From assembly GCA_903939845.1 (NCBI GenBank), contig CAJAIJ010000037.1, positions 1-64,000 of the forward strand: a DNA stretch of 64,000 bases. Reading direction: 5' to 3'. The notes under the pieces were generated by a model that had not been told where the DNA came from, did not search any database, and saw nothing but the letters and a program-made list of their open reading frames with translations. The DNA comes from an uncultured Solirubrobacterales bacterium (lineage in GTDB: Bacteria > Actinomycetota > Thermoleophilia > Solirubrobacterales > 70-9). Below, piece after piece: positions 14,101 to 20,100 of the stretch. Position numbers and translations under genes: made by a program. Every line of letters begins with the position of its first letter. Within the stretch, counting starts at the first letter, position 1.

Positions 14101-17100
14101 TCGCAGGCCTCAGAGGTCGAGAGGCAGTCGTTTGTGTCGTCGCCTGTGGTCTCTACGTAGTAGGTCTCGCCGGTGGCCGGTGAGATCGGGCCGCGGGCAT
14201 TGCCGGAGGAAGCAGAGGCAGAGCCTGCCGAGTTGGTGCCGGTTACGTAGGAGCGGATGAACTTGCCCTCGTCTGCTGACTGCAGGGTGTAAGAGGCGGT
14301 GTTGTAGCCGGTGCCGGAGGTGATCAGGGTGCAGCCCGCCACCGGGGGCACGAGGGTTTCGTTGTCGCAGCGATACCACTCGTAGGTGAAGGTCGGTGTC
14401 GGGAAGCCGGTCCAGGTTCCATCGGTGGTGGTCAGCGTCTTTCCGACCTGGCGGATGCCGGTGACGGTCGGGGGCGCGGAGTTGTCGGGTGCCGGATCCT
14501 CGATCACGGGATCGGTGGCGGCCGAGTAGGCGACGCCGTCAGGCGAGATGCCGTTGGTGGCGGTGACCTTGACCCGGAGCGTCTTGGCGGTGTCGTCCTC
14601 GGTCGGGGTGTAGGTGGAGTTGGTGGCCGAGCCGATGTCGGTGCAGGTGGTAGCGGTGCTGCTCTCACTGGTCATGACCCGGTCGCCGGATCCGGTGTCG
14701 GCTACGGCGACGAACTTCTCCTGGCCTGCAGGGCCGCCCCAGGTGACCGAGGTCCAGTCGTTGTCGGCGGCAGAGGTCCGGGTGGTCCAGTCGATGCCGT
14801 CAGGGCTGGTCATCACCCGATTGCCAGTACCGTTGAGGGACACGGCGACGAACTTCTCCTGGCCTGCAGGGCCGCCCCAGGTGACCGACTGCCAGGTGTG
14901 GTCGGCGGCAGAGGTCCGGGTGGTCCAGTTGACGCCGTCAGGGCTGGTCATGACCCGGTTTCCGGTACCGGACTGCCCGACGGCAACGAACTTCTCCTGG
15001 CCTGCGGGGCCGCCCCAGGTGACCGACCACCAGTCGTTGTCGGCGGCCGAGGTCCGGGTGGTCCAGTTGATGCCGTCAGGGCTGGTCATGACCCGGTCGC
15101 CTGATCCGCTGCTGGCTACGGCGACGAACTTCTCCTGGCCTGCGGGGCCGCCCCAGGTGACCGAGCGCCAGCTGTTGTCTGCGGCAGAGGTCTGGGTGGT
15201 CCAGACGATGCCGTCGGGGCTGGTCATGACCCGGTCGCCGGTACCCGAGCTGGAGACGGCGACGAACTTCTCCTGGCCTGCGGGGCCGCCCCAGGTGACC
15301 GAGCGCCAGCTGTTGTCTGCGGCAGAGGTCTGGGTACTCCAGTTGATGCCGTCAGGGCTGGTCATGACCCGGTCGCCAAATCCGCTGGTGGCTACGGCGA
15401 CGAACTTCTCCTGGCCTGCGGGGCCGCCCCAGGTGACCGAGCGCCAGCTGGTGTCTAAGGCAGCGGGCTGGGTGGTCCAGACGATGCCGTCGGGGCTGGT
15501 CATGACCCGGTCGCCGGTACCCGAGCTGGAGACGGCGACGAACTTCTCCTGGCCTGCAGGGCCGCCCCAGGTGACCGAGCGCCAGCTGTTGTCGGCGGCC
15601 GAGGTCCGGGTGGCCCAGTCCACTCCGGCCAGGGTTACGGTCTCCTCACACCTCTGCCACTGGTAGGCGAAGCCGCTCGGGTCGACCACGGCCGGGTTGG
15701 CGTTCCAGGTGCCGGAGTCAGCAGTCAGCTCCACGCCGACTTCGGCCGGGAGGCCGCCGGTGATCGCCGGGGCGACCGTGTTGGTCGGGGCCCTGAGGAC
15801 CTCGCCGAAGGCGTTCGAGGGTTCGCTGTCGGTCGGGGGCCAGCCGTTGTCAGCGGTGACGTATGAGCGGACGTACTTCCCGTTGTCGGCTTCCTGGAGG
15901 GTGTAGGTGTCGGTGTTGTAGCCGGTGCCGGAGGTGATCAGTGTGCAGTCGGGGTCCGTCGGCGGTACATCGGTGGCGGTGTCGCACCGGTACCAGGCAT
16001 AGGTGAAGGTCATCTCGTCGCCGACAGGTTCGGAGATCGTCGGGTAGCCGTCCCAGGTGCCGTCGGTGGTGGTGACCTGCTGGCCTACCTTGATCTCGGT
16101 TCCGCTGACCAGCGAGACTTCCGGGGCCGTGTCGTTGGTCGGCGGGTCGCCCTCGATCAGTCCGGTCTGGGCGCTGTAGGCGACGCCGTCCGGGTCTACC
16201 CCGTTGTCGGCGGTTACCTTGACCCGAACCTTCTTCTCGTAGTCGTCGGGCTGGAGCTCGTAGGACTGGGCGGTGGCGCCGGAGATGTCGGTGCAGTTCG
16301 GCTCCTCGGTGAGCTTCGTGACCTGGTTCGCGTTCCCGGCGACATAGACGTTGTCAGCCGAATCAATGGCGATGGCGTAGAGGCCGTTATCGGTGTTCCA
16401 GTAGGTCGACGAAACACCCGCCGGGGTTATCTTGTTGACCGCGCCGCCGCCGCCAGCGGTGTACACGTTCCCGGAGGAATCGAGGGCGATGTCGTCGGGC
16501 TCATCGCCCGTCGTCGCCCAGGTCGGGTCGACAACTCCGGCCGCAGTCACCTTGATCACCCGGTCGTTGCCGTAGTCGTTGGCGTAGACAGTGCCATCCG
16601 GAGCAACGACGAGCGAGTTAGGGGTACTGGGTGCCGTGCTGGCCCAGACGGCCGTTCCTGTGCCGTCGGAGTCAAACTTCGAGATCGAGCCGGACAGGTT
16701 GGCCGTGTAAATGTTGCCGGCCTGGTCGACCTCGATCGCGTAAGGAATGCTGCCCGTGCTCACCCAATTGTTCTCGGTGGCGCCGGTCGCGGTGTTGATC
16801 CTCGTGATTTTGCTGTTCGACTCGTTAGCCGTGTAGAGGTAGTCGCCAGCCGGACTGATCGCGATGTCGATCGGCTTGCCGATGATCGGGAGGTCATTGA
16901 AGGGCGTTGTCACGGTTCCGTTCGCGGCAACCTTGGAGACGGTATTCGCGACTCCGTAGTTGGCCGTGTAGGCATTACCGGCGGAATCTACGGCCACTCC
17001 ATTCGGGAGGTCGCCCACCGTGAAGTTCTGGGCAGAACCCGGCTGTGGGATCCTGGTTACGTTGTCTCCGGAGGCGTTGGCGGTGAACACCGTGCCGGCG

Positions 17101-20100
17101 GAGTTGACCGCGATGTCGACGGGGGACTGACCGGTCGATCCGAGGACCGTCGGAGCCACAGTGACCCCATCACACCTCTGCCACTGGTAGGAGTAGTCGT
17201 CCGATGTGAGCGCCGGGTTGGCGGTCCAGTCGCCGGGGTCGGCGGTCAGCTCCTGGGTGACCGCCTCATCGCCGGAGATGGAAGGCAGCGCATCGGGTGC
17301 GGTGCCTGAGTTGGTCGGGGCCCTGAGGACCTCGCCGAAGGCGTTCGAGGGCTCACTTGCCACTGGCGGCCAGCCATTGTCGGCGGTCACGTAGGAGCGG
17401 ATGTACTTTCCGTTATCGGCTTCCTGAAGGGTGTAGGTGTCCATGTTGTAGCCGGTACCGGAGGTGATCAGTGTGCAGTCGGGGTCCGTCGGCGGTACGT
17501 CGGTGGCGGTGTCGCACCGGTACCACGCGTAGGTGAAATACATCAGGTCCGGAGGAGGACCGGGGTCAGTCGTGGTCGGGTAGCCGTCCCAGGTGCCGTT
17601 GGTGGTGGTGACCTGCTGGCCTACCTTGATCTCGGTTCCGCTGACCAGCGAGACTTCCGGGGCCGTGTCGTTGGTCGGCGGGTCGCCCTCGATCAGTCCG
17701 GTCTGGGCGCTGTATGCAACGCCGTCCGGGTCTACCCCGTTGTCGGCGGTTATCTTGACCCGGACCTTCTTCTGGTAGTCAGCCGACTGCAGTTCGTAGG
17801 TGGAGGAGGTGGCTGAGGCGATGTCGGTGCAGGTGAGGGACGGTGTCGCGATTCGATACGGACCGCCCCCGCCATCTCCAACTGCAACTGTCGTTCCCGC
17901 GCCGGCGGCCACTGAGTAGCCTCCGATATTCGGAGCTGTCTGCGTAGTCCAGGTGGTGCCGTCGCTACTTGTGGCGATGGCGTTTGAGTCGAATCCTGCT
18001 GCGGTGAACTGGCCATTGCCGTAGGTCACCCCGAACCAGGGCTTGCTTGGGATGCTGGTCTGGGTCCAGGTGGCCCCTTCGTCAGTGCTGATCATCGCGG
18101 TGTCGCTGGCATTGGTACCGGAGCCTGAACTCACGGCGACCCACTTGCTATCTCCGTAGACGACATCGCGCCAGAACTTCCCGGTGCCGGGAGTCGTGGT
18201 CTGGGTGAAGGTGTCCCCGTCGGTGCTGTAGTAGGCCTTGTCGTTACCGACGACAACGAAACGGCCGTTTCCGTAGCCGATCGCCTTTGGCATCGTGTCG
18301 AGCGTGCTCGAGGCGGTGGTCCAGGTGAGGCCATCGGTGCTCGTTATCACCGGGCCCGCGGAGGAGACGGCGACGAACTTGCCTCCTCCGTAGGCGACGC
18401 TTTGCCAGCCCTGGGTCGAGGGGACGCTGGCGGCGTTGGCCCAGTTGATTCCGTCCGCGCTGGTGATGATCCTCTGAGCCCCCGCTCCGCCGAAGTCACC
18501 CACAGCAACCCAGAGACCCGCACCGTAAGTGACGGATTTCCACTGCCAGAGGCTGTCGGGAGCAGAGTCATCCCTTGCGGTCCAGTTGAGTCCGTCCGGA
18601 CTGGTCATGATCCGGCCTTCGGAGGATGACCCGTTTCCGACAGCCACGAACTGCTCGGAGCCGGATGCGCCGCCGTAGGCCACGTCAAACCAAGGGGCAG
18701 TTGTGCCGGCGGGGTTGGCGTATCCATTCCAGGCCTCCTCACACCTCTGCCACTGGTAAGAGTAAGTCGGCGGGGTCGGGTTCGAAGTCCAGTCTCCGGG
18801 GTCAGCCGTCAGCTCCTGGGTGACCGCCTCGGGTCCGCTGATCGACGGAAGTGTGTCGTTGACCGGGGCCTGAAGGACCTCGTCGGTCTGGTTCGAGAAG
18901 GCGATGCCGTCGGGGTCGACCCCGTTGTCGGCTATCACCTTGGCCCGGACCTGCTTGCCGGAGTCGGCGGCAGCCAGGGTGTAGGAGGAGTTGGTGGCAC
19001 TCGGGATGTCCGTGCAGGGCGAGGGACTGACTGCGACTCCCTCAGCAAGGTTCGAGACGGAGACCAGGGACTGGTTGGCACCGAGGCCGTTCAGCAGCGA
19101 CTTACCGATCGAGGTCGAAGGGCTGCTCTTGAAGTTGGTCCAGAAGAGGTTCTGCTCAGTCGAGGCGAGGCCGAAGATCCGGCCGTCTCCGTTGTTGATC
19201 AGCACTGCCGAGCCACCGGTCGCCTTGTCGGCCCGGTTGATCGCGTTCGTTCCCCCTACGGCAGCCTCGCCCCAGAACAGCGAGTTGCCGCTGACCGTGA
19301 TGCCCCAAGGCTGGGATACGAGCGAGGAGACGAAGGTGTAGTTGGGCGAGGTGCCGTCCAGGTTGGCTCGCCCGATCCTGCCGCTGGAGATCCCGTAGTA
19401 GTTGGACCAGTAGATGTAGTTGTTGTCGAGGGCGATCCCGGTGACGGCCCCGTTGGGCATCGAGATGAAGCTCGTGTTGACCCCGGTGCCGTTGATGTTG
19501 GCCCGGCCAATGTCGCCGGTGCTGAACCCGCCCCAGTAGATGTGGGTGCCGTTGACGGCGATCGACTGCCCGTCGATCGGGCCGGTGTTGATGAAGCTCG
19601 AATCCTTTCCTGTTCCGTCGAGGTTGGCGCGGCCGATGGTCCCCTGGTCGCCCTGGATCCAGTAGATGTACTCGTCGCTGACGGCAATCCCGTCGACGTC
19701 ACCTAGTCCGGTGATGAGGCTCGGGTTCGCCCCGGTGCCATCGAGGTTCGAGACCCCGATCTTGTCGGGGTTGATCACCGAGTAGTCGGTCCAGTAGAGC
19801 TTCTGGGTTACCCCGGGCTCACACCGCTGCCACTGGTAGGAGTAGGTCGGGGGCGTCGGCGTCGAGGTCCAGGACCCATCGGAAGTGACATTCAGGGTCT
19901 CGCCGACCTTCGGGGTCTCCGTCGTAATCACGGGGTCGGTATCGACCGAAGGCGAGCGGCCTTCGATCTCGCCGGAGATCGAGCTATAGGCGACGCCATC
20001 AGGGGATTCGCCGTTCGAAGCCGTGACCTCGACCCGGATGTAGTCCTGGTATTCGTCGGGCTGAAGGGTGTAGGTCGATGAGGTGGCGCCGGAGATGTCA

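What the first reader, a model, noticed from the sequence alone, without database searches (positions are those of the whole stretch)
14650..19820. Complete beta-propellers nested inside the cysteine loop of Ig-like modules
In four of thirteen modules the text between YxYxWxRC and CxxIxxATxxxY is not a short loop but a six- or seven-bladed propeller (YWTD-like, SPDG-like, NHL-like, SPDG-like). Uninterrupted modules elsewhere in the same protein have only a few residues there. The Ig fold is split and presumably closed by the disulfide at the propeller base, giving a side-displayed binding head on a rod. I do not know this architecture as a described system.
Basis: partly seen in the sequence, partly recalled or inferred. 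Interest (0 to 1): 0.85.

Follow-up and report, generated by a model that had tools for sequence, protein, structure and literature searches.

The report
Propellers plugged into split Ig domains
A giant secreted bacterial protein carries whole beta-propeller domains inserted into one exact loop of its immunoglobulin-like building blocks, and comparison with a related species shows that the same slot can be empty or hold a different propeller, like interchangeable tool heads on a rod.

Summary
The 3639-aa protein (11166-22085, -) has 13 Ig-like modules. In 4 of the 12 with a cysteine pair, the Cys-Cys loop is 268, 303, 292 or 334 aa instead of 6-12. The inserts look like complete propellers: a model of module 2 (pLDDT 87.8) gives seven blades (nearest YCF48), and module 1 matches LDLR-type YWTD propellers. 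Thirteen intact nested modules occur in six genomes of the order, ten of them in one genus, always between the same two cysteines. In 70 related loci, 266 of 274 loops are <=36 aa and 8 are 268-342.

The new result is exchange. Window socket 2146-2481 and its ortholog in G008 (flanks 89/90% identical) hold different propellers; G008's cargo is 92% identical to the propeller in another window socket, with switch points at the cysteine codons. A further related socket is empty in G008.

[quoted passage not shown] I file this as a new variant: propeller cargo, a probably disulfide-closed socket, an actinobacterial family, cargo exchange. Ligand binding and the disulfide are inferred.

The parts
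11166..22085 (-). giant secreted protein, 3639 aa: signal-peptide-like N-terminus, 13 Ig-like modules, C-terminal collagen-like tail and small terminal domain
   Evidence: signal peptide read by eye, not computed
19974..21986 (-). six uninterrupted Ig-like modules (the first without a Cys pair; loops 6-11 aa in the other five)
19821..19973 (-). N-half of nested Ig module 1, ends at C755 (YSYQWQRC)
19017..19820 (-). nested cargo 1: YWTD propeller, 268 aa
   Evidence: best Foldseek matches are LDLR/LRP-family entries
18852..19016 (-). C-half of nested Ig module 1, from C1024 ([14 protein letters not shown])
18741..18893 (-). N-half of nested Ig module 2, ends at C1115
17832..18740 (-). nested cargo 2: seven-bladed SPDG propeller (SPDG-A), 303 aa
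   Evidence: model pLDDT 87.8; YCF48 is the best PDB match, TMt 0.71
17667..17831 (-). C-half of nested Ig module 2, from C1419
17310..17666 (-). uninterrupted Ig-like module, 12-aa loop (C1524-C1537)
   Evidence: modelled together with module 2
17172..17324 (-). N-half of nested Ig module 3, ends at C1638
16296..17171 (-). nested cargo 3: NHL/SBBP-type propeller by repeat profile, 292 aa; 92% aa and 95.1% DNA identical to the cargo of a non-orthologous socket in G008
16131..16295 (-). C-half of nested Ig module 3, from C1931
15801..16130 (-). uninterrupted Ig-like module, 12-aa loop (C2034-C2047)
15648..15800 (-). N-half of nested Ig module 4, ends at C2146; the orthologous socket in G008 holds an NHL propeller
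14646..15647 (-). nested cargo 4: SPDG propeller (SPDG-B), seven repeats 46 aa apart, 334 aa
   Evidence: not modelled
14481..14645 (-). C-half of nested Ig module 4, from C2481
14166..14480 (-). uninterrupted Ig-like module, 11-aa loop (C2573-C2585)
11586..12107 (-). part of the collagen-like G-X-T tail (residues 3327-3500)

Best explanation
The protein is a secreted, probably surface-displayed fibre built from a tandem array of Ig-like modules that resemble the AIR9/SCAB Ig families. The hairpin loop bounded by a conserved cysteine pair acts as a socket that accepts a whole beta-propeller. Propellers suit this because Velcro closure puts their N- and C-termini in the same blade, so the chain can leave and re-enter the Ig domain through two neighbouring strands; a C1-C2 disulfide at the propeller base would lock the joint. 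The propellers are most likely ligand-binding heads that stick out sideways from the Ig rod, as in the split Ig-like domains of RTX adhesins. Over evolution, sockets gain, lose and exchange propellers by recombination within the short conserved sequences around the two cysteine codons, so binding heads can change while the rod stays the same. SHOWN: the nesting in sequence; its recurrence at one site with several propeller types; a confident model of one nested module with the propeller fold; different cargo or none in corresponding sockets of two species; switch points at the cysteine codons. INFERRED: the disulfide, side-on display, ligand binding, surface anchoring, recombination as the agent.
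For: Loops of 268-334 versus 6-12 aa between the same cysteines in one protein. Thirteen intact nested modules in six genomes: G000 x4, G008 x2, G016 x3, G007 x1, G103 x2, G167 x1. All 8 long cases scored keep both cysteines. The loop length is bimodal: 266 of 274 <=36, 8 at 268-342. Model of residues 1062-1590: pLDDT 87.8, pTM 0.75, ordered Ig halves, one strand through C1115 and one through C1419; best PDB match YCF48; module 1 matches LDLR/LRP YWTD propellers. Cargo exchange: window 2146-2481 and G008 1397-1691 have 89/90% aa identical Ig halves but SPDG versus NHL cargo; the NHL is 92% aa (95.1% DNA) identical to the cargo of window socket 1638-1931, whose halves are only 62/49% identical to those of G008 1397-1691; switch points lie at the cysteine codons. 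A tree on the Ig halves alone (153 of 291 modules) pairs 2146 with G008-1397 (SH-aLRT 96); 1115 and 1638 are nearest to each other and the plain G008-1174 comes next by path length, though that grouping is not starred; at least 6 changes of nested/plain state. In G167, three neighbouring ORFs with related modules have 6-8 aa loops where one protein has a 293-aa NHL propeller.
Against: No coordinates or PAE were available, so the strand pairing of the Ig halves and the C1-C2 distance were not measured; pTM 0.75 and DSSP are indirect. The module 1 model is weaker (pLDDT 77.4, five models 57.7-77.4; Ig N-half blocks 37-77, last two blocks 47-51); cargo 3 and 4 were not modelled. Exchange rests on one pair of species; hidden paralogy with losses could mimic it. 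The tree has 97 columns and 77 of 148 inner branches are open. The YWTD socket has kept its cargo type in both species. Ten of the 13 cases are in one genus, and 0 of 36 module pairs in 18 further loci (17 from outside the order) were nested, so the feature is rare and local. No ligand and no experiment.
Confidence: 0.72

Rival explanations
1. Nested but not exchangeable: each propeller was inserted once and inherited. The apparent swap is hidden paralogy: the ancestor had two near-identical sockets with different cargo, and each species lost a different one.
For: The window protein has what looks like a duplicated pair of modules (1115+1524 and 1638+2034; C-side DNA 87% over 454 aligned positions), so duplications do occur. 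The YWTD socket is stable in both species.
Against: The duplicated pair itself carries different cargo (SPDG-A and NHL) between similar halves, and the nearest G008 module is empty, so cargo must have changed at least once apart from the duplication. The switch points fall at the cysteine codons on both sides.
Confidence: 0.2
2. The propellers are ordinary tandem domains, and the flanking half-motifs are independent strands or linkers, not one Ig domain.
For: Ig-half confidence is low to modest in the YWTD model. SPDG propellers are common outside this socket: of 79 loci kept from a capped list found with an SPDG-nested query, only L115 and L116 showed the nesting.
Against: Related plain modules show the same halves joined by 6-13 residues. 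The halves are ordered in the SPDG model. The junction is the same cysteine pair in all 13 intact cases.
Confidence: 0.07
3. Nested propellers are structural spacers or enzymes, not ligand-binding heads.
For: No ligand site was identified. Propellers of these types include enzymes and scaffolds (general knowledge).
Against: Cargo type varies between sockets while the rod is conserved, and the YWTD cargo (57% aa) has diverged more than its Ig halves (90/78%), which suits recognition. The RTX-adhesin work uses emergence from a split domain as a criterion for ligand-binding domains (PMC12077191).
Confidence: 0.2
4. Assembly artefact: propeller reads misjoined into Ig repeats.
For: The genome is fragmented (59 contigs for G000) and repeats are prone to misassembly.
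Against: Long open frames with clean junctions at one site in six genomes. The window SPDG-A module and a G103 module of another family align at 61% through both junctions, and the YWTD module aligns at 65% with G008.
Confidence: 0.03

Closest known systems
Split Ig-like domains of Gram-negative RTX adhesins (Marinomonas primoryensis MpIBP, Vibrio cholerae FrhA, Aeromonas hydrophila AhLap)
   Same: Giant adhesins with Ig-like arrays in which a ligand-binding domain buds out of an Ig-like domain split in sequence, with its termini on one side, and is projected off the axis (passages of PMC10865825 and PMC12077191).
   Different: The cargo named in those passages is PA14, peptide-binding, sugar-binding/CBM or RTX domains; the words 'propeller' and 'disulfide' occur 0 times in both papers. 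Here the cargo is several propeller types, the socket is bounded by a cysteine pair, four sockets lie in one protein, no RTX-repeat family matched, and cargo exchange between sockets is visible.
Integrin inserted (I) domains; RrgA vWA inserted in an Ig-like stalk
   Same: A binding domain inserted in a loop of another domain.
   Different: Different folds and hosts, and no multi-type cargo in one socket. Integrin papers seen as search listings only; RrgA recalled.
YCF48-type seven-bladed propellers and LDLR/LRP YWTD propellers
   Same: Fold of cargo 2 and cargo 1.
   Different: Those proteins are not known to me as nested in Ig modules (recall); sequence identity in the rows shown is only 13-23%.
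Propellers newly amplified from single blades (PMC9218822)
   Same: SPDG-B blades are 82-96% identical in DNA with a 46-aa period, as expected of a young propeller.
   Different: That paper (search listing plus a term search) does not contain the words inserted, insertion, nested, Ig-like or immunoglobulin.

Membership tests
RTX adhesin with split domains | ligand-binding-type domain nested inside one Ig-like domain | tested here: met
   nesting by sequence and model; the ligand-binding function itself is not shown
RTX adhesin with split domains | RTX nonapeptide repeats near the C-terminus | tested here: not met
   no RTX/hemolysin-type repeat among the 10 Pfam matches at E<=1; the C-terminus is collagen-like
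RTX adhesin with split domains | type I secretion and outer-membrane retention plug | not testable with these tools
   the genus includes a MAG titled Solirubrobacterales (L116 = G007), so no outer membrane is expected (general knowledge)
RTX adhesin with split domains | experimentally shown ligand binding | not testable with these tools
   no experiment
AIR9/SCAB-type Ig domain (PF23197, PF16709) | profile match of the Ig module | tested here: inconclusive
   6 and 5 of 13 modules match, best E 2.7e-06 and 1.6e-07; the window protein is below the SCAB-Ig cut-off (19.4 of 27.6 bits), the G008 protein above it (29.3)
LDLR-class YWTD propeller (cargo 1) | six-bladed YWTD fold | tested here: met
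   the 50 rows shown are titled LDLR, LRP, megalin, ApoER2 or LRP4 except 3sov_A and 8ctg_C, LRP6 by recall; six YWTD-like motifs 42-45 aa apart; Ldl_recept_b 19.2 bits, just under its cut-off of 21
YCF48-like seven-bladed propeller (cargo 2) | seven-bladed propeller fold | tested here: met
   model with Velcro-type strand order by my reading; YCF48 5ojr_D TMt 0.71, other top rows are Kelch propellers at higher rmsd; membership by descent not tested
NHL/SBBP propeller (cargo 3) | NHL or SBBP repeat profile | tested here: met
   SBBP 33.2 bits, above its cut-off of 20.5, best stretch inside cargo 3; NHL 18.5 bits is under its cut-off of 20; fold not modelled

The most novel reading that the evidence does not exclude
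A cassette system for surface receptors. The cysteine-bounded loop of the Ig module is a recombination-friendly socket whose short conserved lips (22 nt around the first and 13 nt around the second cysteine codon in the pair compared) let complete propellers be gained, lost and swapped between sockets, genes and species, so that an actinobacterial lineage re-arms one rod with different binding heads.
Probability: 0.4. Interest if true: 0.8.

Novelty: new variant of a known kind. Interest (0 to 1): 0.62.

Why it matters
It extends the split-Ig, budding-head principle from Gram-negative RTX adhesins to actinobacterial surface proteins with a different kind of head, which suggests convergent use. 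It also gives a natural case of domain-insertion engineering: one socket, several propeller types, empty and filled counterparts, and mappable switch points. That makes testable how a folded domain is inserted into, and exchanged within, another domain without breaking it, and it offers a scaffold for displaying propellers.

Tried and rejected
Mobile-element insertion: not specifically searched; the junction alignments show only short shared sequence at the lips. RNA element upstream: Rfam found only three tRNAs in the window. Wider spread in the phylum: 0 of 36 pairs in 18 loci nested. Relatives in viral contigs: 3 loci with plain Ig modules, none for the free YWTD protein. First enrichment of the half-module profiles failed through a swapped score and E-value; redone. 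The L068 gap of 36 looks like a boundary artefact and was counted as short; gaps of 36-60 were left out of the tree, which used 153 of 291 modules (all modules of ORFs with a nested one, at most two of each other ORF). L141, L180, L133, L143 and L207 have half matches but no long gap. Counts of nested modules leave out broken or partial cases: L197 (frame lost before the C-half), L198 (stop inside), and the G007:C59 contig edge. Literature searches for propellers inserted in Ig domains: 0 papers; one listed, none describing this by title or the abstract start shown. The best DNA alignment of unrelated cargo gives 72%, so DNA values near that (YWTD, 74%) carry little signal.
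Full report
WHAT IS THERE. The finding lies in one open frame, window 11166..22085 on the minus strand, 3639 aa. It has 13 Ig-like modules. The first has no cysteine pair; the other 12 have C1 at the end of a YxYxWxRC-type strand and C2 at the start of a CxxIxxATxxxY-type strand. The 12 Cys-Cys loops are 10, 7, 8, 11, 6, 268, 303, 12, 292, 12, 334 and 11 residues. With the inserts left out, the four interrupted modules align end to end with the plain ones. A collagen-like tail follows. The stated coordinates are right.

WHAT THE INSERTS ARE. 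Insert 1 (residues 756-1023) has six YWTD-like motifs 42-45 aa apart. Its model (pLDDT 77.4) has LDLR/LRP-family YWTD propellers as best matches. Insert 2 (1116-1418) was modelled with its Ig module and the next plain one (pLDDT 87.8, pTM 0.75): I count seven four-stranded blades, the last closed by the N-terminal strand, and the best PDB match is YCF48, TMt 0.71. Insert 3 (1639-1930) matches SBBP above cut-off; it was not modelled. Insert 4 (2147-2480) has seven repeats exactly 46 aa apart, the last one short; the six full ones are 82-96% identical in DNA, so this propeller is young. It was not modelled. Its N-terminus also supplies a stretch that the last repeat lacks, as in Velcro closure (read from sequence).

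DOES THE IG DOMAIN CLOSE ACROSS THE PROPELLER? In the model of residues 1062-1590 both halves are ordered (block pLDDT 86-96, apart from the first ten residues at 59 and the joints at 74-76). One strand (model 46-62) runs through C1115 and another (349-360) through C1419, and the order of elements resembles that of the following plain module. pTM 0.75 for a 529-residue chain is more than the 303-residue propeller alone would be expected to give, which suggests that the Ig part is placed relative to it; this is an inference, since coordinates and PAE were not available. In the weaker model of module 1 the Ig N-half is at 37-77 and the last blocks of the C-half at 47-51, so that model does not settle the question. 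The Ig module resembles Pfam IG_AIR9 and SCAB-Ig (6 and 5 of 13 modules); the weak alignment to a solved SCAB1 chain (E 0.93) puts the insertion in a hairpin loop. The two cysteines behave as a pair: of 274 + 36 half-module pairs, both are present in 268 (all 8 long ones among them), neither in 33, one in 9. That fits a disulfide but does not prove it.

HOW COMMON IT IS. Ig modules of this kind occur in 16 of 50 genomes of the family (E<=1e-6), 131 of 232 of the order (E<=1e-8) and 14 of 396 drawn from the phylum (E<=1e-14). In 70 loci from these searches, 266 of 274 half-module pairs had gaps <=36 aa and 8 had 268-342. 12 of the 70 loci were fetched through a nested query and are biased; among the other 58, three nested modules were found (L057, L081 twice). 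Intact nested modules: G000 4, G008 2, G016 3, G007 1, G103 2 and G167 1: 13 in six genomes of one order, ten of them in one genus. Broken or partial: G043, G287 of another family of the class, and a contig edge in G007. A class search with the SPDG-nested profile gave 11 of 399 genomes at E<=1e-50; the match includes the Ig N-half in G000, G007, G043 and G287, while one match in G372 starts at its edge but its locus L215 showed no half-module; G103 is not among the 11. The YWTD-nested profile hit only G000 and G008 of 232 at E<=1e-40. Eighteen further loci, 17 from outside the order, gave 0 nested of 36. SPDG propellers themselves are widespread: 79 loci kept from a capped list, with records of many phyla, of which only L115 (= G103) and L116 (= G007) showed the nesting.

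CARGO EXCHANGE. G008, a species of the same genus, has a colinear ortholog of 2496 aa, cut by the contig end. Window socket 2146-2481 corresponds to G008 socket 1397-1691: N-half 89%, C-half 90% identical, paired in a tree of the Ig halves with SH-aLRT 96. Yet the window socket holds an SPDG propeller and the G008 socket an NHL propeller. That NHL propeller is 92% identical in protein and 95.1% in DNA to the cargo of window socket 1638-1931, whose own halves are only 62% and 49% identical to those of G008 1397-1691. The DNA alignments show where the identity changes partner: upstream within the shared stretch at the first cysteine codon (22 identical nt in the same-socket comparison), downstream within 13 identical nt at the second. 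Also, window modules 1115 and 1638 are each other's nearest relatives by their Ig halves (82% identical) but carry SPDG and NHL cargo, and the next nearest row is G008 1174-1181, which is empty, with a 6-aa loop; this grouping is not starred in the tree. In the YWTD socket the cargo type is kept, but the propeller (57%) has diverged more than its flanks (90/78%). In G167, three neighbouring ORFs with related modules have 6-8 aa loops while one protein carries a 293-aa NHL propeller there and another NHL propeller upstream outside the Ig module, 46% identical to the first: a separate gain in another genus is likely. The tree needs at least six changes between nested and plain; it has few columns, so this is rough.

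HOW IT MOST LIKELY WORKS. The Ig array is the rod, the cysteine-bounded hairpin is the socket, and the propellers are heads held by two adjacent strands and probably one disulfide. [quoted passage not shown] PMC10865825, passages). By analogy the exposed propeller face would bind glycans or proteins. Short shared sequences at the two lips would let cargo be exchanged while both domains keep their frame. Ligands, cell-surface anchoring and the exchange mechanism are untested.

COMPARISON AND NOVELTY. The principle is known for RTX adhesins, and inserted domains are known in integrins (search listings only). I found no paper on propellers in split Ig domains in four searches of an open-access library that lacks most subscription journals. 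It is not an RTX adhesin: no RTX-repeat family matched. I therefore file it as a new variant of a known kind. The names Solirubrobacterales and Actinomycetota come from the record titles of L116 and L115, which I take to be the same contigs as G007:C76 and G103:C57 because the contig lengths agree.

LIMITS. One pair of species carries the exchange argument; the genomes are fragmented assemblies; only two of the four nested modules were modelled, without inter-domain error; the best alignment of unrelated cargo already gives 72% DNA identity, so values near that are baseline.

Noticed in passing
L046, L051, L057, L081 (C-termini of nested-propeller proteins): Five proteins with nested propellers end in ...PPTG or ...FTG at the stop codon. 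This may be a shared C-terminal signal; the window protein ends differently (KRAAKAARG).
   Followed up: no
window 22090-22145 and 22366-22421: A 56-nt direct repeat, 86% identical, 276 nt apart, just upstream of the giant gene. No Rfam match there.
   Followed up: partly
window 11166-22085 (-): All five TGT cysteine codons among the 32 cysteine codons lie at C1 of the QWQ[RT]C-type sockets (654, 755, 1115, 1638, 2146); the other 27 are TGC.
   Followed up: partly
window 1-10771 (-): Directly downstream lie two more long ORFs on the same strand: 7244-10771 with Big_13 Ig-like domains, and 1-7206, open at the window edge and not searched for domains. The locus may be a cluster of surface proteins.
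   Followed up: partly
window 32206-33372 (-): A free-standing YWTD protein of 388 aa with a CARDB-like C-terminal domain, up to 45% identical to nested cargo 1: a possible source of, or sister to, the nested propeller.
   Followed up: partly
L197 and L198: Two relatives look broken: L197 loses frame after the SPDG blades, and L198 has a stop inside the propeller. Sequencing errors are possible. Described only.
   Followed up: partly
L194 (IMG/VR contig), frames of 3326 and 1167 aa: A contig of the viral collection carries two frames with long arrays of these Ig modules, without long inserts.
   Followed up: no
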